Below are positions 1,832 through 31,108 of a DNA stretch of 64,000 nt, piece by piece. Source of the stretch: an uncultured Elusimicrobia bacterium (GTDB taxonomy: Bacteria; Elusimicrobiota; Endomicrobiia; Endomicrobiales; CAIRNS01); NCBI GenBank assembly GCA_903880015.1, contig CAIRNS010000028.1, forward strand, positions 1 through 64,000, read 5' to 3'. Below the pieces are notes generated by a model. The model did no database searches. It saw only the letters and a program-made list of their open reading frames with translations, and was not told the DNA's origin. Made by a program: the position numbers and the translations under genes. The first letter of the stretch is position 1. Every line of letters starts with the position of its first letter.

Positions 1832-1921
1832 CCGAGCGGTTTTTTCATATGTTTAATCCTCCCTTTATTAATTTCTCTTTCTCGACCTGCGGCAATTAAA
1901 ACCCCGGAAGAGGTTTCTTAA

Positions 1922-1979: not shown

Positions 1980-2013
1980 ATGCCGGCATCATAATTCGTT
2001 TAAATTGAACACC

Positions 2014-2334: not shown

Positions 2335-2348
2335 AAAAAAGCGCGCAA

Positions 2349-2408: not shown

Positions 2409-2666
2409 ATGAATATAAAGAAGAACGAAATACAACCTGACTCCGCTTTACAAAGAGAGGTGCTGGCAAGAGAAATATCGATGGGATTAGGGGATATGAT
2501 GAATTTAAAATATTATCAACTCATAACGAAGAAATATCCCGAACGGATATTAAGAGATATTTACAATCACGTGAGGCTGATTCCGCAAAGTCAGATCAAA
2601 AAATCAAAAGGCGCATTATTCAATTATCTTTTACAAAAGCATGACAAAGACAATCATCGCAATTAA
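2409..2666 (+). CDS. hypothetical 85-aa protein
   Basis: Basic, helical and unrecognised. The ATG directly follows the operator array without a ribosome binding site, so a leaderless mRNA or another start (the GTG/ATG inside the frame) is possible. The 3' end overlaps the RuvC-like gene by 26 nt, which suggests the two are translated together under control of the array. Confidence 0.55.
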   Translation: MNIKKNEIQPDSALQREVLAREISMGLGDMMNLKYYQLITKKYPERILRDIYNHVRLIPQSQIKKSKGALFNYLLQKHDKDNHRN

Positions 2667-3138: not shown

Positions 3139-3148
3139 TGCCCATATT

Positions 3149-3157
3149 TGGTATAAT
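3149..3157 (+). promoter_or_regulatory. extended -10 promoter
   Basis: TGGTATAAT forms an extended -10 element about 50 nt before the gene at 3207. No convincing -35 is visible, as is usual for extended -10 promoters. A strong AAAGGAGA ribosome binding site follows at 3193-3200. Confidence 0.55.
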
Positions 3158-3206
3158 ATAGCGGGTAATGCGTTAGGGGAATGATATTTTCCAAAGGAGA
3201 TTATCA

Positions 3207-3710
3207 ATGGCCGTTACTTTGAAGAAAGAGGTAGTTGTTGATCGTTGGTCCATGGTTGTTGAGGAAGCACAGGGAAAGGCTGAAGAAGTCTTCAAAGATA
3301 CCGAGAATCTGATCCAAAAGTCAGAAATTCCCGGAGTGACATCTGAAAGAGTGAAGGCCAATCCCGGCCTTCTTGCCGGAGTTTTCGGAAATGAAAGAGC
3401 TTTTATCAGAGTCGTCAATAAAAATTTGAAGCGTTATGAGATGTTCATCGGTGTCAGGGATTACGGAAAGAATCTTGACCTATCATGGTATCTGACGTAT
3501 GAACCGGGCATGATAGCTGGGCTTATCTCTATCGTAACATCCCGCTTATTCCCCGGAAGAGCATGGACTCCAAAATTAAACTTATTTCAGCAGCAGGATT
3601 TGACAGCTTATACAACTGTTATTCATCATTGCTTTCTTCAGTCTATCGAAAAAATAACTAAAGGTCAGTCAATCGACAAAAAATCGAAAGGCTTTTTGGG
3701 AATCTCTTAA
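3207..3710 (+). CDS. hypothetical 167-aa protein paired with the VirD4-like ATPase
   Basis: The start is set by AAAGGAGA 7 nt upstream. Residues 1-50 are a charged helix, possibly coiled coil, and the middle contains a WYLTYEPGM segment followed by a moderately hydrophobic stretch. No family was recognised. It ends 18 nt before the VirD4-like ATPase gene and has its own promoter, so it likely works with that ATPase. Its role, for example as a membrane partner or substrate adaptor, is a guess. Confidence 0.6.
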   Translation: MAVTLKKEVVVDRWSMVVEEAQGKAEEVFKDTENLIQKSEIPGVTSERVKANPGLLAGVFGNERAFIRVVNKNLKRYEMFIGVRDYGKNLDLSWYLTYEPGMIAGLISIVTSRLFPGRAWTPKLNLFQQQDLTAYTTVIHHCFLQSIEKITKGQSIDKKSKGFLGIS

Positions 3711-3728
3711 TCCGGTCCGGAGAAATGA

Positions 3729-5834: not shown

Positions 5835-5865
5835 AAGAAGTGAATATTAAGCAAGGAGATCAAAA

Positions 5866-7518: not shown

Positions 7519-7533
7519 TAGTATGTTCATAGT

Positions 7534-7923
7534 TTAATAAGAGTTGAAAAATTTATTTAGTTTATCTTTCATCCTTTTTGTCGGTTTATGCAGTTCTTTT
7601 TCCCAATCGGAAACGGTTCCAGGGTCAATGTTCAGTAGTGCGGCGAATTTCCTGTGGCTCAGTCCGGATAGTCTGCGGTAGAATATGAGTTTGTCTTTCA
7701 GGGTTTTGAACTCAGTATCAAAGGGGTTATAGCCCAGAAATTTAATGATCTTTGGAAAGAATGATATTATGGGGAAAGACCGGTGGTTCTCCCAACCATT
7801 TATAGACATGGTATCCGAACCTATCATTTGAGCGACATCCTTTTGAAGAAGCTTCAAATCGAGTCTTCTTTTTCTGATATGATCTCCCAAGGTTTCAAGG
7901 ATTTTAGGATATGATGAATCCAT
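7534..7923 (-). CDS. regulator with two tandem helix-turn-helix domains
   Basis: 129 aa from the ATG at 7923 (a longer frame to 7971 would run into comM homology). The first HTH covers LGDHIRKRRLDLKLLQKDVA...SINGWENHRSFP and the second covers LKDKLIFYRRLSGLSHRKFAALL...VSDWEKELHKP. The helix patterns are alike, pointing to an internal duplication. Double-XRE proteins of this size occur at the ends of integrative elements. It is the outermost gene of the element, reading inward from the comM junction. Confidence 0.75.
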   Translation of the reverse strand: MDSSYPKILETLGDHIRKRRLDLKLLQKDVAQMIGSDTMSINGWENHRSFPIISFFPKIIKFLGYNPFDTEFKTLKDKLIFYRRLSGLSHRKFAALLNIDPGTVSDWEKELHKPTKRMKDKLNKFFNSY

Positions 7924-7967
7924 TAGTTTTTGAGAGTGAAGTGTTATCCTGCCGAAAGGCAACGCAT

Positions 7968-8450
7968 ACATGCAAGTGCGGCAATTATGGCCACGCGGAG
8001 AAGAAGTGCCTGTGTAACCCGTTTCAAATAAAAAAGTATCAGGCGAGAATATCCGGGCCTTTGCTGGACCGCATTGATATTCATTTGGAGATTCCGTCCC
8101 TCAAAGTATCTGAATTAATCAATGACTCAGCAGTCCCCGGCGAGTCATCGGCAAATATCAGAGAGCGCGTTATCGAGGCGCGCAAAAAGCAAAAAGATAG
8201 ATTTGCGGGTACAAAAATTCATTGTAACGCCCAGATGAGCTCCCGTCACCTTAAAAAATATTGCTGCCTGAATCCTGAAAATAAGGATCTTATGCGCGCC
8301 GCCATAGGAAAGTTCGGGTTTTCAGGAAGAGCGTATGATAGAATCTTGAAAGTCAGCCGCACCATCGCCGACCTTGAGGGGAGCCCCGAAATAAAAAAAA
8401 CTCATATAGCTGAAGCAATCAATTACCGCCATATGGACAGAGACGGATAA
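7968..8450 (+). pseudogene. comM: comM (yifB) 3' fragment, Mg-chelatase-like AAA+ protein
   Basis: Homology begins at CKCGNYGHAEKKC and runs through SGPLLDRIDIHLEIP, VPGESSANIRERV, FSGRAYDRILKVSRTIADLEG and INYRHMDR, the C-terminal third of ComM/YifB, a hexameric helicase used in natural transformation. Walker A/B and the N-terminal Lon-like domain are absent. Upstream is element DNA with no matching frame, so the gene was cut by the element and the 5' part is elsewhere or lost. It cannot function alone. Confidence 0.85.
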
Positions 8451-14926: not shown

Positions 14927-15265
14927 AATTGCAAATTATCAACAATTATCAATATTTTTATGTATGACAACAAATGACACGGAATGACAAGAAAAGACAT
15001 TAAATGAACATTGAAATGGCACAAATTTGGCACAAGTACTGTTCCTCTTGGCAAATCTGCATGCCACTCTCTCCTGTGTAATATATTTTACCTTTTCTTG
15101 CCACGTAATACAAATTGCTTTTGCTAAGATCAACTTAAAAAAGTAGCGCATGATTTGCCCCCTTTCATTTTACACATTAAATTTGAAAATCCCGGGAAAA
15201 ATCTCTTAACCATAAATTCATGGATTCTTTATTCTATATTCAGTATGGAATAGTATACTTACCCC
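14927..15265. other. non-coding left end of the island
   Basis: These 340 nt hold no supportable gene. They contain one copy of the 21-bp inner-end repeat (15016-15036, TGGCACAAATTTGGCACA core), several A+T-rich stretches, and the -10 region of the giant gene. The small frames here cross the tRNA or show no coding character. Confidence 0.6.
15254..15259 (+). promoter_or_regulatory. -10 box of a leaderless giant-gene mRNA
   Basis: TATACT ends 6 nt before the ATG at 15266, which begins the signal peptide. No ribosome binding site fits between them, so transcription probably starts at or next to the ATG. The -35 region is poor. Confidence 0.5.
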
Positions 15266-18200
15266 ATGAGTAATAAATATTCTTTCCATAAACTTACCGC
15301 GATCCTGACGCTCGGGGCATTCTCGTTCTCATCTATTCTTGCCGAACCACTCTTAAGCGTTACCAGTATTGTCGAAGACCGCGCGAAAGAGGTGTCTCTG
15401 TCCGCAAAGATCAACCAGGAGACGCTCCCTCTTAACCTTGGCAGGATCGTAGAAAGTGCTTCGAACGGATCGGACGCTCTGGTCATACTTGTTCAAGACC
15501 TGCATTGCCATCCGCAGGTCCAGAAGAATATTGCCGGCATTCTCGCCTATTTTGAAGGACAGCATCATCTCTCGGGGATCTTTGCCGAAGGCGCGCCGGC
15601 GGGAAAGGTAGATACGACGCTGCTTACGACGCTCCCCGACAAAAAAATACAGGCTCAGGTTTTGAAGGATTTTCTGGAGAAGGGACTTATAAGCGGAGTG
15701 GAGTATTACGCCGTTACCGCGGCCCCGGACAAGCTGTACGGCCTTGAACAATGGGATGTGTATCAATCCAATCTTGCCCGGATCAAGAAAATATTTTCAG
15801 AGCAAGCTGACGCGCCCCGCGTGACCCTCGAGCTGTCATCGCGCGTTCGAGAATTGAAAGAGCGCTATTGTTCCCGCAAGGCTAAACGGATCGAGAGATT
15901 TGTCGATGCGTATATCGCGGACGTTCCGGCGAACTACAAACGGATCTACAGCCTGGCGCGCAAGGTAAACACCGATGTGAAGGAATATCCTAATTTTTAC
16001 CGATATTTGCAGATCGCGGAGCGCAAGAAAGCCATCCGCGAGCACCAGCTTAACAAGGAGTTAAAAAGCTACCTCAAGGATTTGCGGGGTATCGTCCCCT
16101 TTGCTATCTTCCAGCAGCTTACCAGCAAATTGCGCGACACCGGGTCTAACGACTCCTACCGATCCCTGGTTGAAGTGGCGAATATATATACACCCGAGTT
16201 GAGCGTATACTATCCTCAGTTGGCCAATTTTTTTCAAGTCATACAGCTCAATCATCGTGTTAACCCCATCAACCTTGTGTTGGAGGAACGTGATTTTAAA
16301 CGGGACCTGCTTGCCCGATATGCGGCCAGTCCCCTGGAAAGGGAAATACTGTTCATCGATGAGATGGCCCGTCGGCTCAATGACTATGCGGCCCTTAAGA
16401 TGTCCCCGGAGGAATTCAAATATTTTTCCCGCAATAAAGGCCCGTTCAAAGCCCTGCTCGTCAAGTACTTTGGATATGAGGATGTGAAAGACGCAGTGGC
16501 CCTGATCGATAACGATGACCTGAACCAGTATTTTACGACAAATCTCAACCGCGACACTATCTTCCTCAACAACTTGACCCGGAACATCGGCGCTCTCCCG
16601 CTGTCAACCGATCCTTTTCGGGCAACCCGCGACGAAAACCTGCTCGGCAGACTGGATAGTTTCAAAACTATCTATGTTGCGATAACCGGCGGATTCCATG
16701 CCGACCTGGCCGCCCAATTGGATCGTGCGGGCATTTCGTACGTAAGCATCGTGCCGAACGTGACCCAGAACTATGACGAAACGATCTACCGAAAACTGCT
16801 CGCCGGGAAACTCAATATCGCTGATATCGCCTCCTCAGCTTTCGCGCCGGCGCTTCTCGCCCTGGGTATGGAGCCGGGAACACTCAACGCATTTCTCTGG
16901 AAGTGGTACAAGGACGCGGTCAGCGGCGGTTTTTCTCCCCGCAGCGTGTATGAAGATATTAAGGGATGGATAGACGCGAACCACATTATGGCGTCTGTTT
17001 CGGTAAAAGAAGATGAGGCTGCGGGCACGTATGTTCTGGAGATCAATGGGCAAGAATACCCCTTTGCCCGTACAAACGGCGCCGGGTACGAGCCGGTCGC
17101 AGTTCCCGACGGATCAGCGTTTGATGCAGATGCGGACGGCGATCCGTCTTTCGCTGAAGCAGTATTCACACTTCCCGTTCCACCGGCCCCTACTATCAGG
17201 AAACCCGTGTCCGGCCGCAATAAAAGCGGGTTAGCTGCAATTCTAAAAAACGTGCGCACTACTCTCTATCTGCGGGGTTTCTGGCCCTTGTCGCTGCCGA
17301 AAATTGATCTTTCGAAAGGAAAGATACTTTTGTTCATCACGGCTCTTTATCTTGCGTTCAGCATGGCGGTGATGCCGTTCACATCGAATACGGCGCATGC
17401 CGCTGCTTTGAATCCTCGTACGCCTTCCGTACAGGTATACAATGATCCACTGTATGGATCACCCCATTCGGTCTCAGACATTACGGCCGTCCAGATATCC
17501 GGGAACTCCCCGCGCAGTCCAGCGCGATCAGCAACCCTTGCGCCGGCAGCTCCTGTCATGCCGGGATCAGCCGTCGCGCAGGCAAAGGCTCCCGGTGTAC
17601 GGGATCCGGCAACAGCATTGCGCGGAGCGGGGGTGTATCATGAAGCTGATAGTGGTATTCCTTCTGGTTATTTGAACATATATACTGATCCTGCGGACCC
17701 GGACGTGCATTTTTTGACGTCACGAGACAGGATGATCTATCTCATGCAGATCCATGGAACCGTGTACCAGTTTGCTTTCTATGGTACCGAAGGCCAGATG
17801 GTAAGAGCCGCGGGGATTATCGGTAATGACTCTGATCATAATGACACTGTCGGCCCGGCAAATGCCCGGATATGGAACATAGACACAGACAAACGAATGG
17901 GCGGCAGGTTGTATGAAGGCCGGGGTGTGCTGGTGCCGTTGGCAGATCCCGGTTTGATCGGTAATCCGGACGCGATCCTCGCGGCGGAGGATTTTTTCGG
18001 CCAGCCCGGGGTCACCGCGCGCGTAACGGGCAAAACAACAATAGTGTATATAAACGGCAAGGAGTACGTGTATGTTCCGGGCGCGTTGTCGATCGACTGG
18101 ATCACGGGGGAAATGGATTTGACGCCCACGCCGGCCGACGTGTTCGATCCCATCGCCGCGCCGAAGGTCAAGCTGATAGAAATTCAGAGTTCGCAGGTTG

Positions 18201-21200
18201 CCGGGTACACCAAAGTGTATTATGATCAGCACCGGTCAAACTCCGGCGTATGGATGAGCCCTGACGGAAAAATGATGGTCAGGGAATTGGATGGCCATTT
18301 TTACGATGTGGGCAATATGGGGTATGACGCGTTGATGCTCGATGAAATAGGGATGAAAGGCAACGACCGTGACAGTGACGGACGCATTGATCCGCCGTAT
18401 GCAAAAGCCGCCCTGTTGAACAATCATATTTACCACGGCTGTGGCAAGCTTGTCCCGGTGTTGGAGGACATTACCGATCCTGCCGTCCAGTATTCTGAGT
18501 ATGCTGTAGAGGATATATACGCGGAACCAGGAATTGAAACGAGGGTTGTAAGCTATCGCCTGCCTGGTGGTACTATCAATGTCACCCAGGTTAAATACCA
18601 CGGTGTTTGGTATCGTTATATCCCGGGAGAATTCAATCGCCCTCCTGCCGCAACTGCTGCGGCAACTCAGAGCCCCGCTCAACAAACCGCCGCGGCTCAG
18701 CCGACTGCACAAGCACAGCTTTCCGCGCAACCGGGAGGAATTGCCCCGGCTCAACAACCACAGACTCCCGCACAATCAGGGGTTATTGCCCCGACTCAGC
18801 AACCACAACAAGCGGTGGTTCAGGCACCCGCGCAACCCGGGGCTGTTGCTCCGGCCGCAGTCAACAACGGGGCCTGGTTCAACAACATCATCAATTATCT
18901 CCAGAATAAGTTCGCCTGGGTCATCGGCGCGGCGCTGATCGTTACAGCGATGATATTTGGAAAGCTTAGAAATAAAAAAGACGTGATCGGAAACATTGCT
19001 GATGCGCCTGAGGGCCCTCTGCCGGACTACTCCCCGAACGAGAAGTATTTGCGGAGCGAATACCAGGCAGCCTTTGACGCGCTCGAGGGCGAAATGCCTG
19101 ATTTGATCATGGTCATGACAGATAATAATCCCGCAAAGGCTCAATGGTGCAGGGAGTATTTCGGCAGCAGGCAGGGAGCTCTCAAAGAAGTCCCGTTCGA
19201 GGTGGTGAGCGCGCCGGGACAAGATACCGGCCGTACGTTGATGGAGGTATTCAATACGCTGCGGCAGGAGAAGTTTGAAGAACTTGCTGTACGCTATCCC
19301 GCCTTGCGCGGCAAGAGGCCGGATCAACTTTCTGTGGTCATTTTGAATGTTGACGGGCTTGACCTTAACACCTTCAGTCGTTCTCTCCCGGCAACAGCAC
19401 GGGGAAAAACTATTACACCGCTTGATCTTTCCCTGGCCAACGGCATTCGTTCCACACAGAAACTGCGGGAACAGGGGCGGGGAGGGATGGTTGTCATGAA
19501 TCCCGGCGCCGCCTATGTGGGGCCGATGACCCGTACGGGAGACATCACCCTGGTTGGCGCCAATGTCAGCTACGAACAAATGCTGCAGCAGCAGCTGCCG
19601 CTTATGATCAATAATGGTCGGGTTCGCAAACTCTACCATAAATTTAACGACACCCAGATCGAGAACGCGCTGGAAAAAACAGCCCTCACCGGCATGTACC
19701 ACCTGAGCAACATGAAGCTTAAACAGATGCAAACGTTTACCGGGAACATGATCCTGAGCTTTGATACCCCCGCCAAATACCAGCAGTTCATGGAGTTCGC
19801 GGAGATCGTGTGTGCCCAGGTGAACGCCACGTACCGCAACAAATCACCGCCGCAGTTCGATATGTTCACTCATCTTTTGATCCCTCTGGTCATGAACTCC
19901 AACGGTGAAAATCCCACCGGATTTTTTATAAAACTTCGTGATGCCTTCGGCGATGAGAACGACCGCGACTTCTATAAAGATTTCTACCAGGACCTGTTCC
20001 TCTTGTACCGCCGGTTGTTCCCTCAGCACTTCAAGAATATTCAGATGACCGCCTTTGTGCCATCTGACGCGGTATATACTCCCATCTCTGATGCAAACCA
20101 TCCCTCCGTCTCGTCTACGCGGGACCAACTGCTTTCATTACAGCATGCTTCTCAGGAAGCCGCGCCCGCGCCTCCCGCCATAACCAGTAAAAAACTGCAA
20201 ATAAGAAATATTCTCATCTTTTCCCTCACCAGCATGGCGGTCGCGCTGGTTATCAACGGTATCGCCCTCGCGGTGATACCCGCCGGCGCGGCGCTGCTGA
20301 TGATCAAAGGCAGGCCGTCGAACAAGCTGCGGTTTTCGGACGCTTTCGTTTTCAGCGCGGCCCTTCTTTCGGTAACGCTGGCGGCGGCAGGAGTGTTGCA
20401 GCTTGCGTTATTGGTCGCCGGTTCAACGCTGGTAGTTTTGATCAGCACCTTCCTTAACGGCCGGAGACAGCAACGCAGCAGGGCGGCGGCGCTTGCCTTT
20501 ACGCCCTCTGCACCCTCGCGTGTTCAGCATACGGAAAACAGCGAAAGTAGCACTACCGCGGGTGTTTCCACTCCTCTTGACAAGTCTCGTGAACTGATTG
20601 AGGAGTGGGGCCAGCTTCTGCTTAATATTAAAGCGAGCGCGCAAGACTATGACAGTATGTTGTTAAAGGCTAAAAAGGTAATGCAGCTGACGCTCCTTTC
20701 AAAAAAATCATTCGGCCCCAATACTCGGCCTACCGCAATGCTATACCGGCGGTTGGCTGAGCTTGCCCTTGAAACTGAGCGCCGGATCGCCGTTGAACGG
20801 CAAGATACCCCGTTGCCAAAGAGTGAACTCGGGGCGCTGGATCCTCTGCGCGATCAGTTCGTCAGCGTGCATCTTTACGCCATTGAGTATCTTCACGCGC
20901 TGGATTTCTCCGCAAACCTGGAAACGCTTTCCAGCTACATCTATCATAAGCAAAACTGGATGGAGCGTTCAGGACTCATGCCCCTTAACCGGTTGATCCA
21001 TGGTATGACGCGGGGCATTTCGGTCTCACGCCGGTCGCTCCAGGAACAGACCCGGCGCGTGGCAGGCATCGGAAATTTCATCGTTGGTCCCGATAATCCT
21101 CTCTATGATCATTCCGTTACCGCGGCCGAAATAAACGAGTATGTTCACAGTCTTATCAGCAAGAATTCCCGTTATAATGTCGGGATATTTGAGTCATGGT

Positions 21201-24200
21201 ACAACCGCAAAGGACTGCAGAGGACCATATCGATCGTGACCGGGTTGCAATCCCTGCTGGTAGCAGTACCCGTACTTTTGACCGGGAATGTCGGCATGCT
21301 GGCTGCCTACGGCGGCACAGCGGGTTTTATCGTTATCGGGATCCTTATTCCTCTGGCGACAGGATTGGGATTAAAGATATACCTGCATTGGCACTTCATA
21401 CGCAAGGGTAGTAACAACTCGTTCTACGAGGCGCATACACAGGCATCAAGCCGTCTCCTGACCGGTTCTCCGGCATTGAAAACGTCGCTCGAGCGGGCTA
21501 TCTCCCGCAAAGGTCGTTTGAGCGAAGCACAGAATATCATCGTCAAGAAGGAAGAAAACGGAAAAACGATCTTTGATGTCGCTCAGGGGTGCCTTGATGA
21601 ATGGGAAGATATTCTGCAGCAGTCCGCGGGTTCTGCGCTCACAGAAAATGATCTGCGCAGAATCAGGGACAACGCGCTGGAGGTAATGCGAGTCCTGCCG
21701 TTGACCGCTGCGTCGCTCCAGTCTCCCACTATCGAACAAACGGTCTTTGTGTACAATAGATTCATTGAGCTGACGGAAAAAACTTCAGTGATGATACTGG
21801 TGCTTGACGAAACAACGAAAAACGAAGCCGGTCCGGAAATATCTTCCATAAAAGAGATATATGAGTACGCCATCGAATATTTTTCCATTTTGGAACAAGC
21901 GACAAATATTGCCATATTATCTACGTACCGGATTCCAAAAAATGCGCCGTGGTACATACTGGAGCGGCTACATGTAATGGATCTGGTTCGCATATTATTC
22001 TTCATAGGCCCCGGGATCACCGTTTCGAAAAACCGGATTTTCTCCTCGCTGGCGCGTCTGACAACATTGGGCAACACCATTAAGCCCGGGCTCTATGCGA
22101 ATTCTACTTCGAGTATAGCCGTCGGAATATCCCGGGACATTGAGGCCCAGCGCAACAGTGAGTATTTTGAAGTCGGCATAACTGATCTTTGGAAAGTTAG
22201 TAAGATGCTCCGAAAGTTCCAGCCAATCGCCGTTTTGATCGTTCCGGCGCTGGAAATGGTTTTCTTTTCCATGCCGCTGACCTGGTCGGTTTTTGTATCA
22301 TTTTTTGTGATGGGGCTTGGCCTCTCGCTGGTGTTTCACTGGGTACCTATCCTGAGTAATTGGTTGGGAATAAAATACGTGCCTCATAAAAAGCTTTTGG
22401 CCGCGTTGAGCGCAGTATCGCCCGAAGGCAATGTTCACTCCGCCCGGGATGCCATTTTGCAAAAAGAATACGATGAACTAAGTTCAGTCATGGATCCGGG
22501 AAAAACGATGCCGGACCTGGTGCTGGTCATGACCGGGTCAAACAACCAGCAGCAAGGTTTCATGGACTATTTTGAGGCTAACATGCCCGCGTCGCTCTCT
22601 CCTGTTCCCTGTGGGTTCATCTCCACTTCAGGGGAGGGAACGGGCAGGCCAATCCTTGACGCGTTCGATTTCTTCGCGTCGGTCCGCTGGGAGGAACTGA
22701 GGGATCGTTACCCTCAGCTTAAGGGTAAAGATGTCTCTGATCTCAGGATAGTTGTTATCAATGTTGACGGCTCGGACCGGGACACATTAAGCCAGCCTCT
22801 CCCGCTGCAAGTCGACGGTAAAGAGCTGACCCCGCTGGACCTTGCGCTGTATAACGGGGTGCGGGCGGTCCAAGGCCTGGCCCAGGAGAACCGCGCCGGT
22901 ATGGTTATTCAGGATCCCAGTACCGTCTACCTGGGCCCCCTGAAGCGGACGGGCGACATTACTATGATCGGTTCGACGGTGGGGTATGGCCAGATGCTGG
23001 AACAGGGATCGACCCTTCTGTTGAGGGATTTTAATTCCGGCAGGGTGCGCAAACTTTTTCACGCGTATGATGACGCCAAGATCCAGAACATGCTGGCAAA
23101 GAAAACGCTGCGCGGGCTGTATCAGTTAGATAATAAAAATGTGGGACAGATGCAGGCGCTTACGGGTGATATGATCATCAGTTTTGACGAAGCCGCGAAG
23201 TTCGAAAAGTTCATGAAGTTTTTTACCCTGGTGCGCAAGCAGGTTATACTGCCGTATCGCGGGCAGGCCCCGCCTGATTTCGACTTTATCCTGCACCTGA
23301 TGATACCGTATGTCATGCTTTACAATAAAGATGATCCGATGGGCATGTACGCGAAGCTGGAAGAAACCTTCGCGGCGTTCGGCGACCGCAACCACTTCGA
23401 AGAGTTTTATTGGGATCTGTTCAGGTTGTATGAAGATCTGTACGCAGCCATTGGCAATGGTATCGAGATCAACGCGTCCATCGGGACGGAATCTGTCTTT
23501 ACGAGTATATACTGCCAGCCGGGTAGAGGCCAGAATGCTTTAGAAGAACAGCTGGGCCGCCTGTCAAACGTCACCGATTCGGGCAGCGCCCGGCCGCGGC
23601 GCTTCACTCAATTTGGTTCCCCGCGCGATCGGGGCCGGGGAAAACCGGGTGGAAATAATTTGATCGCTCTGCAGCCTTCTTTAAGTGAAGAAGAGGAAGC
23701 CTTTACGCGAAAAAAACGGGACGTCAACGCCATTTTTCTGACTGTTTCACAAGCCCTTCCTAATTCGAACATTTCCATTACGGCTGAACTTGAGAAAATT
23801 AAGGATGAAGGACAGCTTTCGCGGTATATTTCCAGGGTTATCAGCGGTCTGGACACGTATCTGCGCCCCCGCGCGAAAGATCCCGTCATCATTGACGCCA
23901 TACAACGGTTGGGATCTATCGTGACTGAATTGACGAAAACAAAAATTGTTCCAATTTCGGGTCAAGGCCGCGCCCTTGGCTCGCGGGGTTCTGAGAATAT
24001 GTCAGCTTCGCGGCCGCGGCCGGATGCCCCGGGCCTGCCGGCCAGCGAGTTGAACGAACAAAAACGTTTGGTTCTCGAACAGCTAAAAGAATTGGGCGTT
24101 CTGAGGGCGCGCGAGGGCGGCATACCGGCGAGCCTAATGAGATACAGCGTTGAAACCATTAAACGGCGCGCGGCGGTCCTGATGGCGCAGGGACAACCTT

Positions 24201-27200
24201 TAAACACCTCAACCATCCGTACTCAGGAGACGCGTGAACAAGCGAAAGAGCTTGCCCGCCTTGAAGCGGCAAAGAGCGCGGGCACGTATGATGAATCCGA
24301 CTTTAGTCACGCCGTGCGTTCCGCGGGGGAAATGCTGCAGAAAATACAGAACCCTCTGGTCCTGCCCGCGATAGTGAAGCATGAGATCGCGCAGGGGTTA
24401 TCGACTGAAGATCAGAAGTGGCTCACGTCGCGCGCCCCTTTGCTCGCGGAAAGATCGGCGGTATTCGTCATGAGCGGTACCGATGATACCGCGATCGCTC
24501 AGATGCGCGGTTGTGCCGTTCTTGGGATGAACGTCATCGGCGTTTCTCTACTTGAACCGGACGCTTCGCGTGAACAGCTGAGAGGGTACGCGTACGATGA
24601 TGGCCGGGGGCAGTGGAAAAACTATATGATAAATGTCCCCGTTGAAGGGGTGGACGTCGGGGTAAAAGTCTGGGCCGAACCGCGCTGGAATGATTCAAAC
24701 CCCCTGGTGGTGCTGCATCTGGAATTGTTATCTGAGCAAGAACAGATGACTCCTCGGGCTAAGGATATTGCCCGCCTCATGGCGGTGAACAGCCCTGATG
24801 ATCCGGAACGCAAGACATATGAACAGATACTGCGCGGCCGGGGCGCCTTGTCCGTTATCTCTGAGGGGCGTCCAGAATTTAAAGAGTGGGTTACGAGCTT
24901 TGATCTGCCGCACAAGGATTTTAGTGTCGCGGTGGTGCAGATGAACGGCGCGGACAGTATCTTCGCGTCGCCGCGAGCTGTTGACGATGGTTATACCAGC
25001 GACATGGAACTCAACAAAATAGTGTATAGCCTTAACCTGTACAATGGCGATGTTGTCACTGCAAAGGCCATGGACAGAAAGACAGCGGAGCGGGTGGGTG
25101 TGCCCGCGAACCTTTTGGAATATTTCGCGGGAGATGTGGACCGGATAAAAGCGGGACTGGTAACCGCGGATGTTTCGAGTTTTGTATCGGATAGCGAAGG
25201 TTCTTCAATGAAATTTTACCTCCTCTATCCGGAGTGGAATGGAACGGTATACGAATGCAGTTCCCTGAGTATGGCTGATTCTCCCGTCGCTATGGCGAAA
25301 CGCTATATCGAAGAGATGTGGATGCCGGCCCAGCCCCTTAAAATTGCCGTACCCGCTCCGGAAAGGACCGGTGTTTCCTCCCGGCAGGCGCAGGCAGCAT
25401 CACGGTTGGCTCCGGTAGTCAAACTTCACTCGTTAACCGACCTTGGCCGTATCGCGGCACGCATTAAAATGGAAACACCGGACGTTAACACAATCCTTCT
25501 GGAGCCTTTCTCGCTGCGGATAACCGCTGAAGATCACCTGTATGGAACGATAAGCGGCTACTGCGTCGATCCCGGGCTTGTCGACTGGAATACCGAAATA
25601 GCGCGCCTCGGCCTTGCCGGAAACGCCCGCGCGGACCTTTCTCGCGTATTGGAAAGCGCTGAGCCCTCGCAGAACATCGGCGAAATGGCGCAGGAACTAA
25701 ATCGCTTCTATGTGGCGCTGCAATGCTATCAGGCTCTCATGAAAAATATGCAGTTTAAAAATGAGTTTGAGCAATTCGTGAACAACCCCGAGTACGGCAG
25801 GGAAAGCGTTAATGCCGCCCGCTATCTTATGGCATACCGTATAATGGGAATGCCGCCCGCGAGCGCGCAGGAGATCACCGGCATTGCCAACGACCCCCGC
25901 AATCAGCAAAAGTGGCAGTTGTACGTTTCCGTATTCGCCTATATGTTTTTTGTCGCTCGCAACCAACTGCGCGCGGAGGTGGCTGCCGCTCATCAAAAAA
26001 ATATCAACGTGCTCTTTGATTATTCAGTTCTTACCGCTCGAAATTCAGCGGACGTCGTCTATCACGAAAGTTTTTTTAGCGAGAACAACGACAAGATTCT
26101 TATCTCTCCGGTTGTTGACGGCAAGATGCGCGGCGAGTTTGTCCTCAATAACGGCCGTTTGGATCCTGAAAACGGGTACGCTCCCACGAGCGCGGCGCTT
26201 CAGTACTGGATGCGAGAGTTCGGCTTTGACGGCGTCAAGATCTCCGGGATCAGTGCCTACGAAAGCGTCAGGGACGCCTATAATTCACCCACGGTGTTTT
26301 TTGCCCGGCTTGCCGGCGCGGCGCGCGGCGTGAAGCACGACGCGATCCTGGTCGTTGAACCGTTTATGGACCAGCGGCATGGCCACAACAGCAGCGGACT
26401 GGTTGACGCGTACACCCTCATTGATGTTACCGACAGGAATCAGTTGAATCGTCAGCGCATGAGTGACGAGATCGGCCGCCGGGGAAAAATATGGCTCCGC
26501 GTTTTGCCTTCAAATAAACATGTCTCAGACGCGTATGTGGACATGTGTAAACAGGCCCGGGAAGCGTCGCTGTCAGATTACGTCAGTTTCCCCCTAGAAC
26601 AGGAAGAAGGGGAGTATACAGACATAATCGGTTTCCTTCGCTCTATCATTGGGGACGCTGTTATGGGTAGTGAGCCGGTCAACGAGAAAGGCTATTTCGA
26701 TCAAGGATACGCGCAGTGCGGCGCCCTGCGCATTCCGGCATCCGCTCTCACGGCGCTCCAGACACGGCCCGTCGAAGAGTTTACTCTCCGCTCTCAAATT
26801 GGAACGGACACGCTCATGGATCTCCGGGTGCCCGGTTTGGCGGTACTGGGCGTGGCCTATCAGTTCTTAAAATCGGCGGGAGACCCGGGCAAACGATCAC
26901 TGGTCCACCACAGCCGCAATGACGATTTCTTTATCAAAGCGTTCGATGTGTTAGCGCGCGCCGGCGTCACTGAAAAAACCGCTCCGGAAATATGGGCGTA
27001 CTTGAACAGCCTCCACAGCCGGGCGCTGGCTTCGCCTGATGATGAAATGAAGGTAAACCGCACCATAGAGTTGTTCGGGTTCATGCAGGCGCTCCAGGAA
27101 GCGGTTTCTTATGCCGCTTATGTCAGTCGGGGAGGCACAGAACGGAGTGTTGATAAAAAAGTGTTCAAAAAACTGTTGGCTGCCGCCGATTCGTTTATCG

Positions 27201-28384
27201 CGCAAAAAGTCGATGGTGCCACCGAGATTGTGGCCGGATATCCGTGGTTCGCCGAAAGCAGGAGCAGAGACATTTTTACCAGTATGTCCGGCATCCTGCT
27301 GGCTACCGGGCGTTCCGCTGAAGCCCGTGAGATGTTTGAATTCTTCGCCGCTCATCAACAGGGCGACGGTCTTATGCCGAACCGTATCCTAGCTGACGGA
27401 AAAGCAGAGTACAACACCGCGGATGGTTCTTTGTGGTATATAGAAGCGCTTGAGCAATATTATCAGCGCACTGGAGACAAAGAATTTATCATAAAGATGC
27501 AGCCCGTGGTAAACCGCATCATAGAATGCTATGCCCGTCCGCAGGGAGATATCCGTTTGGATACAGATGGGCTGGTGGTAACGCCTGCCCAGTGGACGTG
27601 GATGACTGCCGCTCCTCAGGGAATTACTTTCACGCCGCGAAACGGGAAAGCGGTGGAGATTCAGGCTCTGTTCTACAATGCGCTGGCTATCGTGGCCGAT
27701 ATTAACCGGTTGGCGCACGACCAAGCTCAGGCCGCCCAATGCGAAGAATTAAAAGCACGGGTAGGACAGGCTGTCAATACTCGATTCTTTGAAGAAGGAA
27801 GAGACTATCCCGCTGATGTGGTAGACGGTGATTCGCGCGGAAACGCTATTCGCCCAAACGCGGTCTTTCTGCTATCTCTCAGCAAAGTGGATGATCTGCT
27901 CCGTCAGGAACGCAAGGAAGCAATACTGAAAACTTTGGAAGAAGAATTGCTTACCCCGTACGGCGTGCGGACGTTATCGCCGCGCGATGAGCAATACACC
28001 GGTATGTATGACACGTTCCTGCCTCAAGAGATTAAAGACCGTGCCTATCATCAGGGCACGGCGTGGCCGTTCTTGATCGCTCATTACGCCCGTGCCAAGG
28101 CTAAGGTCAGGTCACAGGACAAAAATACTAAAAGGGAGATACTTTCCTCTATTAACAATCTGGTGCATATTCTGATAGCGAACAACACGCTCCCCGAGTT
28201 GTTCAGCGGCGATGAACCTCAAACGCCGGGCGGCGCGGTATCTCAGGCCTGGTCCGTGGCCGCGCTGCTTGAAGTGTATGATCTGCTCAAAGATTCATCC
28301 AAGCATTTCGCCCTGGTCACCGATCGCGACTTCGATGACGCCACCAACCCCGAGATCTACAAACACCTGTTCGGCGCCGGATAA
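15266..28384 (+). CDS. giant 4372-aa exported/membrane protein with glycogen-debranching C-terminus
   Basis: Uninterrupted 13.1-kb frame. Residues 1-27 are a signal peptide (KLTAILTLGAFSFSSILA). Residues 60-500 form an alpha/beta domain with QDLHCHPQVQ and ITGGFH motifs, loosely like ChaN/TraB folds. A membrane helix lies near 687-710. Two copies of a 147-residue module follow (795-942, 977-1124), then a Pro/Gln/Ala linker to 1200 and a helix near 1220. Two copies of a 350-residue domain (1252-1610, 2401-2747) may be degenerate nucleotidyltransferases. Between them lie two copies of a helical-plus-membrane module (1772-2045, 2109-2369) and a membrane cluster (1647-1733). Residues 2929-3800 are unrecognised, with a barrel-like stretch near 3640. 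Residues 3960-4360 match the amylo-alpha-1,6-glucosidase (GDE_C) domain: GYPWFAES at 3991, NTADGSLWYIEAL, TWMTAAP, VEIQALFYNAL, AYHQGTAWPF and LPELFSGD. The ending domain should hydrolyse or process alpha-1,6-branched glucans; the rest is structural or unknown. The location is inferred as envelope. Confidence 0.88.
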   Translation: MSNKYSFHKLTAILTLGAFSFSSILAEPLLSVTSIVEDRAKEVSLSAKINQETLPLNLGRIVESASNGSDALVILVQDLHCHPQVQKNIAGILAYFEGQHHLSGIFAEGAPAGKVDTTLLTTLPDKKIQAQVLKDFLEKGLISGVEYYAVTAAPDKLYGLEQWDVYQSNLARIKKIFSEQADAPRVTLELSSRVRELKERYCSRKAKRIERFVDAYIADVPANYKRIYSLARKVNTDVKEYPNFYRYLQIAERKKAIREHQLNKELKSYLKDLRGIVPFAIFQQLTSKLRDTGSNDSYRSLVEVANIYTPELSVYYPQLANFFQVIQLNHRVNPINLVLEERDFKRDLLARYAASPLEREILFIDEMARRLNDYAALKMSPEEFKYFSRNKGPFKALLVKYFGYEDVKDAVALIDNDDLNQYFTTNLNRDTIFLNNLTRNIGALPLSTDPFRATRDENLLGRLDSFKTIYVAITGGFHADLAAQLDRAGISYVSIVPNVTQNYDETIYRKLLAGKLNIADIASSAFAPALLALGMEPGTLNAFLWKWYKDAVSGGFSPRSVYEDIKGWIDANHIMASVSVKEDEAAGTYVLEINGQEYPFARTNGAGYEPVAVPDGSAFDADADGDPSFAEAVFTLPVPPAPTIRKPVSGRNKSGLAAILKNVRTTLYLRGFWPLSLPKIDLSKGKILLFITALYLAFSMAVMPFTSNTAHAAALNPRTPSVQVYNDPLYGSPHSVSDITAVQISGNSPRSPARSATLAPAAPVMPGSAVAQAKAPGVRDPATALRGAGVYHEADSGIPSGYLNIYTDPADPDVHFLTSRDRMIYLMQIHGTVYQFAFYGTEGQMVRAAGIIGNDSDHNDTVGPANARIWNIDTDKRMGGRLYEGRGVLVPLADPGLIGNPDAILAAEDFFGQPGVTARVTGKTTIVYINGKEYVYVPGALSIDWITGEMDLTPTPADVFDPIAAPKVKLIEIQSSQVAGYTKVYYDQHRSNSGVWMSPDGKMMVRELDGHFYDVGNMGYDALMLDEIGMKGNDRDSDGRIDPPYAKAALLNNHIYHGCGKLVPVLEDITDPAVQYSEYAVEDIYAEPGIETRVVSYRLPGGTINVTQVKYHGVWYRYIPGEFNRPPAATAAATQSPAQQTAAAQPTAQAQLSAQPGGIAPAQQPQTPAQSGVIAPTQQPQQAVVQAPAQPGAVAPAAVNNGAWFNNIINYLQNKFAWVIGAALIVTAMIFGKLRNKKDVIGNIADAPEGPLPDYSPNEKYLRSEYQAAFDALEGEMPDLIMVMTDNNPAKAQWCREYFGSRQGALKEVPFEVVSAPGQDTGRTLMEVFNTLRQEKFEELAVRYPALRGKRPDQLSVVILNVDGLDLNTFSRSLPATARGKTITPLDLSLANGIRSTQKLREQGRGGMVVMNPGAAYVGPMTRTGDITLVGANVSYEQMLQQQLPLMINNGRVRKLYHKFNDTQIENALEKTALTGMYHLSNMKLKQMQTFTGNMILSFDTPAKYQQFMEFAEIVCAQVNATYRNKSPPQFDMFTHLLIPLVMNSNGENPTGFFIKLRDAFGDENDRDFYKDFYQDLFLLYRRLFPQHFKNIQMTAFVPSDAVYTPISDANHPSVSSTRDQLLSLQHASQEAAPAPPAITSKKLQIRNILIFSLTSMAVALVINGIALAVIPAGAALLMIKGRPSNKLRFSDAFVFSAALLSVTLAAAGVLQLALLVAGSTLVVLISTFLNGRRQQRSRAAALAFTPSAPSRVQHTENSESSTTAGVSTPLDKSRELIEEWGQLLLNIKASAQDYDSMLLKAKKVMQLTLLSKKSFGPNTRPTAMLYRRLAELALETERRIAVERQDTPLPKSELGALDPLRDQFVSVHLYAIEYLHALDFSANLETLSSYIYHKQNWMERSGLMPLNRLIHGMTRGISVSRRSLQEQTRRVAGIGNFIVGPDNPLYDHSVTAAEINEYVHSLISKNSRYNVGIFESWYNRKGLQRTISIVTGLQSLLVAVPVLLTGNVGMLAAYGGTAGFIVIGILIPLATGLGLKIYLHWHFIRKGSNNSFYEAHTQASSRLLTGSPALKTSLERAISRKGRLSEAQNIIVKKEENGKTIFDVAQGCLDEWEDILQQSAGSALTENDLRRIRDNALEVMRVLPLTAASLQSPTIEQTVFVYNRFIELTEKTSVMILVLDETTKNEAGPEISSIKEIYEYAIEYFSILEQATNIAILSTYRIPKNAPWYILERLHVMDLVRILFFIGPGITVSKNRIFSSLARLTTLGNTIKPGLYANSTSSIAVGISRDIEAQRNSEYFEVGITDLWKVSKMLRKFQPIAVLIVPALEMVFFSMPLTWSVFVSFFVMGLGLSLVFHWVPILSNWLGIKYVPHKKLLAALSAVSPEGNVHSARDAILQKEYDELSSVMDPGKTMPDLVLVMTGSNNQQQGFMDYFEANMPASLSPVPCGFISTSGEGTGRPILDAFDFFASVRWEELRDRYPQLKGKDVSDLRIVVINVDGSDRDTLSQPLPLQVDGKELTPLDLALYNGVRAVQGLAQENRAGMVIQDPSTVYLGPLKRTGDITMIGSTVGYGQMLEQGSTLLLRDFNSGRVRKLFHAYDDAKIQNMLAKKTLRGLYQLDNKNVGQMQALTGDMIISFDEAAKFEKFMKFFTLVRKQVILPYRGQAPPDFDFILHLMIPYVMLYNKDDPMGMYAKLEETFAAFGDRNHFEEFYWDLFRLYEDLYAAIGNGIEINASIGTESVFTSIYCQPGRGQNALEEQLGRLSNVTDSGSARPRRFTQFGSPRDRGRGKPGGNNLIALQPSLSEEEEAFTRKKRDVNAIFLTVSQALPNSNISITAELEKIKDEGQLSRYISRVISGLDTYLRPRAKDPVIIDAIQRLGSIVTELTKTKIVPISGQGRALGSRGSENMSASRPRPDAPGLPASELNEQKRLVLEQLKELGVLRAREGGIPASLMRYSVETIKRRAAVLMAQGQPLNTSTIRTQETREQAKELARLEAAKSAGTYDESDFSHAVRSAGEMLQKIQNPLVLPAIVKHEIAQGLSTEDQKWLTSRAPLLAERSAVFVMSGTDDTAIAQMRGCAVLGMNVIGVSLLEPDASREQLRGYAYDDGRGQWKNYMINVPVEGVDVGVKVWAEPRWNDSNPLVVLHLELLSEQEQMTPRAKDIARLMAVNSPDDPERKTYEQILRGRGALSVISEGRPEFKEWVTSFDLPHKDFSVAVVQMNGADSIFASPRAVDDGYTSDMELNKIVYSLNLYNGDVVTAKAMDRKTAERVGVPANLLEYFAGDVDRIKAGLVTADVSSFVSDSEGSSMKFYLLYPEWNGTVYECSSLSMADSPVAMAKRYIEEMWMPAQPLKIAVPAPERTGVSSRQAQAASRLAPVVKLHSLTDLGRIAARIKMETPDVNTILLEPFSLRITAEDHLYGTISGYCVDPGLVDWNTEIARLGLAGNARADLSRVLESAEPSQNIGEMAQELNRFYVALQCYQALMKNMQFKNEFEQFVNNPEYGRESVNAARYLMAYRIMGMPPASAQEITGIANDPRNQQKWQLYVSVFAYMFFVARNQLRAEVAAAHQKNINVLFDYSVLTARNSADVVYHESFFSENNDKILISPVVDGKMRGEFVLNNGRLDPENGYAPTSAALQYWMREFGFDGVKISGISAYESVRDAYNSPTVFFARLAGAARGVKHDAILVVEPFMDQRHGHNSSGLVDAYTLIDVTDRNQLNRQRMSDEIGRRGKIWLRVLPSNKHVSDAYVDMCKQAREASLSDYVSFPLEQEEGEYTDIIGFLRSIIGDAVMGSEPVNEKGYFDQGYAQCGALRIPASALTALQTRPVEEFTLRSQIGTDTLMDLRVPGLAVLGVAYQFLKSAGDPGKRSLVHHSRNDDFFIKAFDVLARAGVTEKTAPEIWAYLNSLHSRALASPDDEMKVNRTIELFGFMQALQEAVSYAAYVSRGGTERSVDKKVFKKLLAAADSFIAQKVDGATEIVAGYPWFAESRSRDIFTSMSGILLATGRSAEAREMFEFFAAHQQGDGLMPNRILADGKAEYNTADGSLWYIEALEQYYQRTGDKEFIIKMQPVVNRIIECYARPQGDIRLDTDGLVVTPAQWTWMTAAPQGITFTPRNGKAVEIQALFYNALAIVADINRLAHDQAQAAQCEELKARVGQAVNTRFFEEGRDYPADVVDGDSRGNAIRPNAVFLLSLSKVDDLLRQERKEAILKTLEEELLTPYGVRTLSPRDEQYTGMYDTFLPQEIKDRAYHQGTAWPFLIAHYARAKAKVRSQDKNTKREILSSINNLVHILIANNTLPELFSGDEPQTPGGAVSQAWSVAALLEVYDLLKDSSKHFALVTDRDFDDATNPEIYKHLFGAG

Positions 28385-28422: not shown

Positions 28423-29805
28423 TTATCGTTCGAGAGGCGAATTTCCTGAAGTGAATGTTCCCGTTTGGATGAGTTCTTCGATTTTAAAAACACCGAGTTT
28501 TCTGCCTTTGAGAAATCCAGCCCACGCCGATTCTGCCAGTACGCCGCTTTCTCTCAGGTCGAACAGCCATTCGTCTGCATGTTCGATAGGACCCGCCGGA
28601 TTGATGCCGGCATGAACATCCTGGAGCCATTCTCTATTAAGCTCTTCGTGTGTACCGACCGCCGGCGCAGTCAGGATGGGTAGGCCGAGCGCGCAATAGA
28701 ACGATAGTTCGCTTGGTTTTGTCCAGAGAACATCCGTGGATCGCAAAACAGCGTTGAACTGTTTGAGATACGAGTATACGTTTTCATGGTAAATGATCTC
28801 GATGCGGTCCCCGAAGAAACGCGACAAATCCAGGGAACAGATATACCGGATAAACTGCTCATAGACCTCCCGGTGAATGCCCGCCGAAAGGTATACCCGT
28901 ACCCGGCCCTCCGCTATTTTATGACGCAAACTGCGCAGAATTCTCTGCGCCATGCCCGCCTGCGCTCCTGATCCACCGACCGCGAAGGTCAGGGTTAAAC
29001 AGTCGGGTAATTGTTCCGGTGACGGGGAATTCCCTAGAAAATAATCAATCGATCTTTTATGGATATTATAAAAGTTGTTTTTTGGGTCCAGCCTCATAAG
29101 CCGGCCTAGCACATCACCTTTGAGTATTCCAAGATCCTCTTTGGACCCGATATTCTCTTTGGGGAGAGGAAATCCCGTCAAAAAAATATTTGCTTCCGGG
29201 ACGCCGTATAGCAGGAGCCGCTTTTTTACTTGTGAGCAGGGGGCTAGATAGCGAATACCGCTTGCGCGGGGATCGCGAGGAACCCAGATGCGATTGATAT
29301 CTGCATCGCAGAGCAGCAGATAATTATTTTGATCCTTATCGGCGAAGTGGTCGGCTGCTATGGCGGACGCGTAAAAGGTATGAATAGCCGGGGCGCTTTC
29401 CCGCCGCAGCGTGTCGACGACCGTTGCGCATAATCCCTTTTGTTTGATCAATTTCTCAAGATGCTTGACTCCGAAGGTGGGCGTCGACAAATCAAGCACG
29501 GGGTACATGGGAGGGATTGCCTGGGCACGATGCAGAAGCCAGAGAAATATTTTCCCTAGGACCGGCAGTTCGCCCGCTTTTGACATGAAATAATACAGTG
29601 AACGCACTTTCTCCCACATCCTGTATTCACCGTGCCCGCACAAATCGCGGGAGCCGTCGATGAGAATGTTCCCAATAGCGATATCCCGCAGTGTGTAGGC
29701 GGCCCGGGTATGCCCAAGGCCCATGAGGACAGTGATTACGAACGCTTTTCCCCGGCACCGGAGATGTGCGCAGTGATGGCCGGTGGGGTTACTTAAGCGA
29801 GCCGG
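28423..29805 (-). CDS. GT-B-type glycosyltransferase, MGDG-synthase/MurG-like
   Basis: 460 aa from the ATG at 29805, which overlaps the glgC end by 17 nt; the longer frame to 29925 lies inside glgC and is not conserved in style. The N-terminal strand FVITVLMGLGHTRAAYTL resembles GT28-type enzymes that start with a GHxxAA loop. The C-terminal half has GGSGAQAGMAQRIL and TKPSELSFYCALGLPILTAPAVGTHEE, the nucleotide-sugar-binding region of MurG/MGDG synthases. Donor and acceptor are unknown. Last gene of the island's minus-strand operon, ending 38 nt from the giant gene, tail to tail. Confidence 0.7.
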   Translation of the reverse strand, partial: PARLSNPTGHHCAHLRCRGKAFVITVLMGLGHTRAAYTLRDIAIGNILIDGSRDLCGHGEYRMWEKVRSLYYFMSKAGELPVLGKIFLWLLHRAQAIPPMYPVLDLSTPTFGVKHLEKLIKQKGLCATVVDTLRRESAPAIHTFYASAIAADHFADKDQNNYLLLCDADINRIWVPRDPRASGIRYLAPCSQVKKRLLLYGVPEANIFLTGFPLPKENIGSKEDLGILKGDVLGRLMRLDPKNNFYNIHKRSIDYFLGNSPSPEQLPDCLTLTFAVGGSGAQAGMAQRILRSLRHKIAEGRVRVYLSAGIHREVYEQFIRYICSLDLSRFFGDRIEIIYHENVYSYLKQFNAVLRSTDVLWTKPSELSFYCALGLPILTAPAVGTHEELNREWLQDVHAGINPAGPIEHADEWLFDLRESGVLAESAWAGFLKGRKLGVFKIEELIQTGTFTSGNSPLER

Positions 29806-31108
29806 CATGATTGTATTGGTCGGCGATAATGACGCTGTTGTCCGGAAGACGTGTGCCGCGCGGTATGATAACGATTCCGTTGATAATATGGAACGGAGAA
29901 TGGTCATCGTTCTTGACGAACACATCTTCGTCGGGACAACCGATGATGCGGGAACCTTTGCCGATCACGACATTCTTGTCGATGATCGCGCGCTTAATGG
30001 TAACTCCGCGTTGGATGCCGTAATTTTCGATCGGCCCGCCGGCAGCGGTCTGTTGAGTGTCATTGCCCATGATTACGGCTTCATCGATGGCACACCCGCT
30101 GTGCACATAAGTCCGTATGCCGACGATACTTCTTTGGATATGGGAAGAATGGATAATGGACCCTTCGCATATGATGGCCTTATCGATACGGCTGTCGAAG
30201 ATCTTGGGAGGCGTCAGTGATCGTTGATGCGTATAGATCGGCATGGCGGCATCATAGAAAGAGAACGGAGGATTTTCTCCAGCCAACTGCATGCTGGTGT
30301 TAAAATACGACGAAATTGTGCCGATATCTTCCCAATACCCTTCGAATTCATAGGCGTATATTCGATGCGTTGATATGATCTGCGGGAAAATGCCTTTTCC
30401 GAAATCGTGCTGCTCGCTGTTTTTCAAAACATCGAGGAGAACATGTTTGTTAAATATATAGAGCCCCATGGAACCGAGAATGTCCTTGCCGTCGCTATGG
30501 GCCTGGGGAAGCCGGAATTTTTTAATGATGTCTGGGTCTTCGGGTTTTTCATGAAAATCAATGATCCTTTTGTCCCCACCCACGCGAATGATGCCGCTTT
30601 TGGAAGCATCGCTGTCAGGCATGCGCAAGCACGACAGGGTAACGTCGGCGTTCTTTTCGATATGCTGTTCGAGTATCTTGGTAAGATCGACGCGGAAAAG
30701 CTGGTCGCCGGAAAGAATGAACACATAATCCGCGTCCAGCCCTTCGAGATACCGTATGCTCTGGCGAACGGCATCAGCTGTGCCTTGCGCGTAGTCATAG
30801 TTCGTCGGGCTTTGCTCCGCCGCCAGGATCTCAACGAAACGGCTGCCGAACGTATCGAATCGGTACGTTCTGGTGATATGCCGGTTGAGCCCGGCGCTTA
30901 AGAACTGCGTTAATACATAAATCATGCCGATGCCGGAATTGATGCAGTTGCTGATGGGAATGTCGATCAGGCGGTATTTCCCGCCCACCGATACCGCGGG
31001 CTTACAGCGGGATTTTGTCAACGGATACAGGCGCGACCCTCTGCCGCCGCCCAAGATAAGCGCGACTGTTTTATTACTCATGATCGAACGGGTGTCCTGT
31101 GATTTCAT
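29789..31108 (-). CDS. glgC: glucose-1-phosphate adenylyltransferase (ADP-glucose pyrophosphorylase)
   Basis: 439 aa. The ATG at 31108 overlaps the upstream stop as ATGA and has GAGGAG before it. LILGGGRGSRLYPLT and RCKPAVSVGGKYRLIDIPISNCINSG form the nucleotide-binding start, FHEKPEDP the middle, and FEGYWEDIGTI the sugar-phosphate site. A left-handed beta-helix end shows hexapeptide repeats (IIDKNVVIGKGSRI). It makes ADP-glucose from ATP and glucose-1-phosphate, the committed donor for bacterial glycogen. No glycogen synthase is next to it, so ADP-glucose may feed a neighbouring glycosyltransferase or a synthase elsewhere. Confidence 0.95.
   Translation of the reverse strand: MKSQDTRSIMSNKTVALILGGGRGSRLYPLTKSRCKPAVSVGGKYRLIDIPISNCINSGIGMIYVLTQFLSAGLNRHITRTYRFDTFGSRFVEILAAEQSPTNYDYAQGTADAVRQSIRYLEGLDADYVFILSGDQLFRVDLTKILEQHIEKNADVTLSCLRMPDSDASKSGIIRVGGDKRIIDFHEKPEDPDIIKKFRLPQAHSDGKDILGSMGLYIFNKHVLLDVLKNSEQHDFGKGIFPQIISTHRIYAYEFEGYWEDIGTISSYFNTSMQLAGENPPFSFYDAAMPIYTHQRSLTPPKIFDSRIDKAIICEGSIIHSSHIQRSIVGIRTYVHSGCAIDEAVIMGNDTQQTAAGGPIENYGIQRGVTIKRAIIDKNVVIGKGSRIIGCPDEDVFVKNDDHSPFHIINGIVIIPRGTRLPDNSVIIADQYNHAGSLK

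What the first reader, a model, noticed from the sequence alone, without database searches (positions are those of the whole stretch)
15266..28384. A single 4372-aa exported membrane protein ending in a glycogen debranching domain
The frame runs 13.1 kb without a break, starts with a signal peptide, passes through several membrane clusters, and ends in a recognisable GDE_C amylo-alpha-1,6-glucosidase domain with the conserved GYPWF, NTADGSLW, AYHQGT and LPELFSGD motifs. A cytoplasmic-type debranching enzyme at the end of a secreted giant is unexpected. It may display or process alpha-glucan at the cell envelope. Domain assignment of the C-terminus is strong; of the N-terminal 3800 residues weak.
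Basis: partly seen in the sequence, partly recalled or inferred. Interest (0 to 1): 0.9.

Follow-up and report, generated by a model that had tools for sequence, protein, structure and literature searches.

The report
Giant membrane protein with decaying debranching enzyme
An uncultured bacterium related to termite-gut Endomicrobia carries a real 4,372-residue protein ending in a sugar-debranching enzyme domain that has lost a key catalytic residue; it belongs to a family of about 16 giant proteins in this genome that share one start module and have picked up different metabolic enzyme domains.

Summary
In detail: one unbroken 4,372-aa frame (15266-28384) with a signal-peptide-like start, membrane segments and a strong GDE_C domain (E 7.5e-89). 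It is not an assembly fusion: same-architecture ORFs (3,235-3,669 aa) occur in three other genomes. The lineage is Endomicrobiales (Elusimicrobiota). Their other parts resemble ordinary sugar and nucleotide enzymes. (2) A GH77/GH13-like barrel precedes GDE_C, so the C-terminus is a eukaryote-like two-domain debranching enzyme. The catalytic residues of both domains are intact in two relatives. Here the barrel nucleophile is Ser, and the glucosidase Asp (Asp1241 of the yeast enzyme, essential by mutation) is Thr4114. In family-f6 relatives the domain is eroded although the giant frame is kept. Most likely the window protein is a membrane-anchored scaffold whose C-terminus binds, but no longer efficiently cleaves, alpha-glucan. 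Topology is unresolved: the start looks exported, but hairpin charges place the body in the cytoplasm.

The parts
15266..28384 (+). giant ORF, 4372 aa
   Evidence: same-architecture relatives
15266..15355 (+). signal-peptide-like N-terminus (aa 1-30), a pattern shared by the paralogs
15428..16795 (+). N-module (aa ~55-510): alpha/beta core with helical insert; motifs QDLHC, EGAP, GxEYY, GLE, R429, GGFH
   Evidence: alignment A1; AlphaFold pLDDT 82; weak ChaN/Tiki match in 1 of 23 members
17324..17380 (+). internal signal-peptide-like hydrophobic segment (aa 687-705, followed by AHA-A)
18911..18967 (+). transmembrane segment (aa 1216-1234), K/R on its C-terminal side
19013..20185 (+). RepA copy 1 (aa ~1250-1640), unknown domain
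   Evidence: alignment A3; normally found as two copies in one ORF, in 17 of 150 genomes
20213..20455 (+). hydrophobic hairpins not shared with the homologs aligned
21224..21373 (+). membrane hairpin 1 (aa 1987-2036) with K/R flanks
22226..22345 (+). membrane hairpin 2 (aa 2321-2360) with K/R flanks
22418..23545 (+). RepA copy 2 (aa ~2385-2760)
25418..26665 (+). GH77/GH13-like glucanotransferase barrel (aa ~3385-3800), catalytically degenerate
   Evidence: PF02446 E 5.7e-4, 1.5e-5; residues
26243..26245 (+). Ser3660 where L058/L059 have the nucleophile Asp
27182..28273 (+). GDE_C (GH133) amylo-alpha-1,6-glucosidase domain (aa 3973-4336)
27605..27607 (+). Thr4114 (ACT) where CgGDE Asp1241 / TWMD Asp stands
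   Evidence: PMC4837477
28196..28198 (+). Glu4311 = CgGDE Glu1492, retained
29789..31108 (-). GlgC glucose-1-phosphate adenylyltransferase, near neighbour on the opposite strand (context)
   Evidence: TIGR02091 437 bits, cut-off 425

Best explanation
The protein is a membrane-anchored giant scaffold of a multigene family typical of Endomicrobia. Its N-module is shared by the family and its C-terminus descends from a eukaryote-like two-domain glycogen debranching enzyme (glucanotransferase barrel plus amylo-1,6-glucosidase). SHOWN: the frame, the shared N-module, the domain assignments, the loss of the barrel nucleophile and of the glucosidase's Asp, intact residues in two relatives, decay in others while the giant frame is kept. 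INFERRED: in this genome the C-terminus mainly binds alpha-glucan (the glucosidase domain is still about 50% identical to intact enzymes, so the fold seems under constraint) and tethers glycogen or maltodextrin to the membrane, with little or no debranching activity. INFERRED: the body faces the cytoplasm, held by hairpins dipping into the membrane.
For: Same architecture in L057, L058, L059. 16 N-module loci in the genome. N-module giants in 55 of 199 related genomes, frames up to 11,894 aa. GDE_C E 7.5e-89; GH77-like match. L058/L059 keep VRLDAL / VAEAFE / SHDSPR and TWMD / (L,I)PEVFSGN; window has VKISGI and TWMT; L057 and f6 further decayed. TWMD also present in standalone GDE_C of G004 (L066), in G116 (L067) and in a Latescibacteria protein (L072). 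D1241A and E1492A each abolish debranching in the yeast enzyme (PMC4837477). Glucosidase domain 48-52% identical to L058, L059, L066. Hairpin flanks 104 K/R to 36 D/E, background 0.113 to 0.117. Glycogen context: GlgC in window, GlgP, GT5, GH13.
Against: This is the only GDE_C in a 99.9%-complete genome that seems to have a glycogen pathway, so an active role would be useful to the cell. Three of four acidic residues known to matter remain (D4002, D4053, E4311). The signal-peptide-like N-terminus conflicts with a cytoplasmic body. No binding or expression data.
Confidence: 0.5

Rival explanations
1. It is still the cell's working debranching enzyme, facing the cytoplasm; another residue or water replaces Asp1241, and the giant membrane part localises it.
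For: Only GDE_C in the genome beside GlgC, with GlgP, GT5 and GH13 present; other motifs intact; a related genome has a single standalone GDE_C without signal peptide (L066).
Against: D1241A abolishes debranching in the yeast enzyme (PMC4837477); TWMD is present in L058, L059, L066, L067 and L072; the barrel in front also lacks its nucleophile.
Confidence: 0.22
2. It is an exported cell-surface or periplasmic giant, used for binding exogenous alpha-glucan, adhesion or host/prey contact, as proposed for Omnitrophota giants.
For: Signal-peptide-like start in the paralogs with a readable start; internal signal-like segment at 687; giant ORFs with membrane helices proposed as coats or adhesins in Omnitrophota (PMC10066038).
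Against: Hairpins consistently have K/R on the soluble-domain side; cargo of the paralogs derives from nucleotide-dependent cytoplasmic enzymes; no adhesin domain found by Pfam in this protein.
Confidence: 0.25
3. Assembly chimera or mis-joined genes.
For: Metagenome assembly, extreme length; one paralog has a frameshift and another an internal stop.
Against: Same domain order in one frame in three other genomes; uniform codon-position composition.
Confidence: 0.02

Closest known systems
Eukaryotic glycogen debranching enzyme (GH13 GT domain + GH133 GC domain; CgGDE 5d06, PMC4837477)
   Same: C-terminal order glucanotransferase barrel then (alpha/alpha)6 glucosidase; GDE_C motifs; E1492, D1078 and D1147 equivalents kept
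   Different: Fused behind ~3,400 residues with signal-like start and membrane hairpins; barrel nucleophile and glucosidase Asp1241 lost
Archaeal-type GDE (TIGR01561)
   Same: Best NCBIfam match to the GDE_C part, E 3.3e-54
   Different: Score 185 against a curated cut-off of 364; different N-terminal architecture
Giant ORFs of Omnitrophota / Velamenicoccus archaeovorus (PMC10066038) and Elusimicrobiota 'huge proteins' (PMC11573180)
   Same: Very long ORFs with membrane helices; Elusimicrobiota already listed as enriched in >5000-aa proteins
   Different: Here a shared N-module defines a multigene family and cargo is recognisable metabolic enzymes; the passages I read describe no such family, and no COG was assigned to Elusimicrobiota huge proteins
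ChaN/Tiki/TraB/erythromycin-esterase superfamily (for the N-module)
   Same: Order of motifs (D/E-x-H after an early strand, E after the next, Arg helix, GGxH near the end), helical insert; one member matches PF04187 at E 0.0011; EreA-like 3b55, 2rad, 6xcs among weak fold hits
   Different: No significant sequence, profile or fold match

Membership tests
GH133 / GDE_C | Full-length profile match above gathering score | tested here: met
   298.6 bits, cut-off 21, positions 2-367 of 367
GH133 / GDE_C | Catalytic Asp (CgGDE D1241, TWMD) | tested here: not met
   Thr4114; nt 27605-27607 ACT
GH133 / GDE_C | Catalytic residue E1492 and residues D1078 and ScGDE D1147 equivalents | tested here: met
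   E4311, D4002, D4053 by alignment
Bifunctional eukaryote-like GDE | GH13/GH77-type glucanotransferase domain directly upstream | tested here: met
   GH77 match 3497-3610, below curated cut-off; supported by homologs with an intact triad
Bifunctional eukaryote-like GDE | Glucanotransferase nucleophile, acid/base and third Asp present | tested here: not met
   S3660, E3698 kept, HD lost
ChaN/Tiki/Ere superfamily (N-module) | Significant profile or fold match | tested here: inconclusive
Exported protein | Signal peptide with AxA-type cleavage site | tested here: inconclusive
   Pattern in paralogs, read by eye; no SignalP available
Glycogen debranching enzyme by activity | Hydrolysis of alpha-1,6 stubs | not testable with these tools
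   needs biochemistry

The most novel reading that the evidence does not exclude
Endomicrobia carry a lineage-wide family of giant membrane proteins that works as a collecting platform: a common signal-bearing N-module is joined to whole cytoplasmic or eukaryote-like metabolic enzymes (debranching enzyme, 1,3-beta-glucan synthase, phosphoglucomutase, kinases), which then lose catalysis but are kept as ligand-binding parts of a sugar-sensing or sugar-tethering membrane structure.
Probability: 0.3. Interest if true: 0.85.

Novelty: new variant of a known kind. Interest (0 to 1): 0.68.

Why it matters
Giant proteins of Elusimicrobiota were known mainly as a length statistic with no functional assignment (PMC11573180). 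A shared N-module ties them into one family (about 7.5% of this genome) and gives a handle to find them. A natural series from apparently intact (G088, G093) through impaired (window) to eroded enzyme domains (G002, family f6) makes the question 'what are giant bacterial proteins for' testable in one gene.

Tried and rejected
Assembly artefact: rejected by same-architecture relatives. First thought of an Omnitrophota genome: record titles of matching contigs say Endomicrobia. GH94 (cyclic-glucan-synthase-like) reading: GH94 matches only weakly (E 0.003). RepA as a nucleotidyltransferase: no profile match; fold model too poor (pLDDT 59) and no fold hit. N-module as TraB or ChaN by profile comparison: no. 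First genome-contig scan with a single sequence found nothing. No paper found that describes this family.

Full report
OBSERVATION. The frame 15266-28384 (+) is open over 4372 codons, with the same codon-position G+C pattern along its whole length. The frame is not a chimera: ORFs with the same N-terminal module and the same C-terminal ~1,000 residues occur in G002 (L057, 3669 aa), G093 (L058, 3501 aa) and G088 (L059, 3235 aa). Six more distant relatives (L060-L065, ~2,800-3,150 aa) share most of the length, with a strongly diverged C-terminus; L061 starts at its contig edge and lacks the N-terminal part.

LINEAGE. The window is contig C28 of a 1.81-Mb genome, 99.9% complete. Contigs of relatives carry the titles Endomicrobiales/Endomicrobia (JAFGGC010000002.1, CALFVX010000016.1 and JANXDG010000064.1 have exactly the lengths of G004:C37, G088:C16 and G093:C35), so the genome lies in the Endomicrobiales, phylum Elusimicrobiota.

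A FAMILY OF GIANTS. The N-terminal 600 residues hit 16 distinct loci in this genome, in frames of 929 to 8,368 aa; the frames sum to about 45,500 aa, some 7.5% of the genome. Two run off contig ends, one has a frameshift and one an internal stop. Only the N-module (aa ~1-510, 25-35% identity) is shared with the window protein; beyond it the paralogs match each other in one pair only (P6/P7). Their other parts contain PGM plus UDPGP, 1,3-beta-glucan synthase plus a GH2-type barrel, GT2 plus ROK, cytidylate kinase plus metallophosphatase, HD, and a PRPP-synthase N-domain. By eye several keep their main motifs (P-loop GQSGAGKS, HD, DxD) and some have lost others (the EGRD motif of cytidylate kinase, the zinc motif of ROK); the comparison with the canonical motifs is from memory. 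The N-module occurs in 55 of 199 relatives, multi-copy, in frames up to 11,894 aa.

N-MODULE. Conserved features are QDLHC...Q, EGAP, GxEYY, GLE, an Arg (R429), GGFH and P497. AlphaFold (pLDDT 82) gives an alpha/beta core with a long helical insert. Motif order and topology recall the ChaN/Tiki/Ere superfamily; one of 23 members matches PF04187 (E 0.0011), and EreA-like structures appear among insignificant fold hits. Profile comparisons were negative. I call it a lead, not a membership.

C-TERMINUS. Upstream of GDE_C lies a GH77/GH13-like barrel, making a eukaryote-like glucanotransferase plus glucosidase pair. In L058 and L059 the barrel keeps nucleophile Asp (VRLDAL), acid/base Glu (VAEAFE) and the third Asp (SHDSPR), and GDE_C keeps TWMD and (L/I)PEV. 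In the window the nucleophile is Ser3660, the HD is lost, and the glucosidase Asp is Thr4114; codon ACT is two changes away from the nearest Asp codon. By alignment this is Asp1241 of Candida glabrata GDE: its position just before the TPRxGxxVE stretch is placed, and the identity of TWMD as the D1241 site rests on that placement plus my recollection of the GDE sequence. Mutation of D1241 abolishes debranching (PMC4837477). E4311 (E1492), D4002 (D1078) and D4053 (ScGDE D1147) remain. L057 has lost more (no TWMD, GYPWF or YHQG), and in family f6 the domain is shrunken, yet the giant frames stay open. Only 3 of 84 genomes of the order have a recognisable GDE_C.

CONTEXT. GlgC lies nearby on the opposite strand (29789-31108; TIGR02091 above cut-off). 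GlgP, a GT5 protein and a GH13 protein are elsewhere in the genome. This is the genome's only GDE_C and only GH77-like match.

TOPOLOGY. The paralogs with a readable start begin with a positively charged, hydrophobic, often AxA-terminated segment, which points to export of the N-module. Yet in L057 no hydrophobic segment separates N-module and RepA (sequence), and 20 isolated hairpins across the family have flanks with 104 K/R to 36 D/E against an even background, which points to a cytoplasmic body. These hairpins are not all independent, several being orthologous. Both cannot hold in the simplest model; I lean to a cytoplasmic body but leave it open.

MIDDLE. RepA is present twice (aa ~1250-1640, ~2385-2760), about 39% identical to each other. 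It is found in 17 of 150 genomes, normally as two copies in one ORF; its fold is unidentified.

CONCLUSION. A real, conserved giant; its debranching domain is most likely a glucan-binding pseudoenzyme or badly impaired enzyme in this genome. The family it belongs to is more interesting than the single fusion.

Noticed in passing
G000:C7:105583-130600 (L022, L023): An 8,368-aa N-module giant contains a eukaryote-type 1,3-beta-glucan synthase domain (PF02364 E 2e-31; 0 of 14 control genomes) followed by a GH2-type barrel; G017 has a stronger match (E 1.8e-64) in a 3,691-aa frame, others look decayed.
   Followed up: partly
L058:2790-13295 and L059:3134-12841, aa ~630-760: After the N-module these relatives carry a membrane segment and a zinc-peptidase-like motif (KDGKIYINSS...FKHEINHLLL).
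   Followed up: no
window 1-8000: Low-G+C stretch (0.39-0.42 against ~0.50) with a conjugative coupling-protein-like gene (3729-5834), a RuvC-like gene (2641-3138) and a DUF4062 protein (5866-7518): looks like an integrated mobile element.
   Followed up: partly
G000:C2:118762-120317 (L033) and G000:C10:45601 (L032): Two N-module paralogs are interrupted, one by a frameshift early in the N-module and one by a TAA: pseudogenes or assembly errors.
   Followed up: partly
L066:5591-7189: G004 has a standalone 532-aa GDE_C without signal peptide, 52% identical to the giant's C-terminus, with TWMD intact.
   Followed up: yes
window 15248-15268: TATACT lies only a few bases before the ATG and no clear Shine-Dalgarno is seen; the transcript may be leaderless. 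The simple promoter scan found no sigma-70-type pair there.
   Followed up: no
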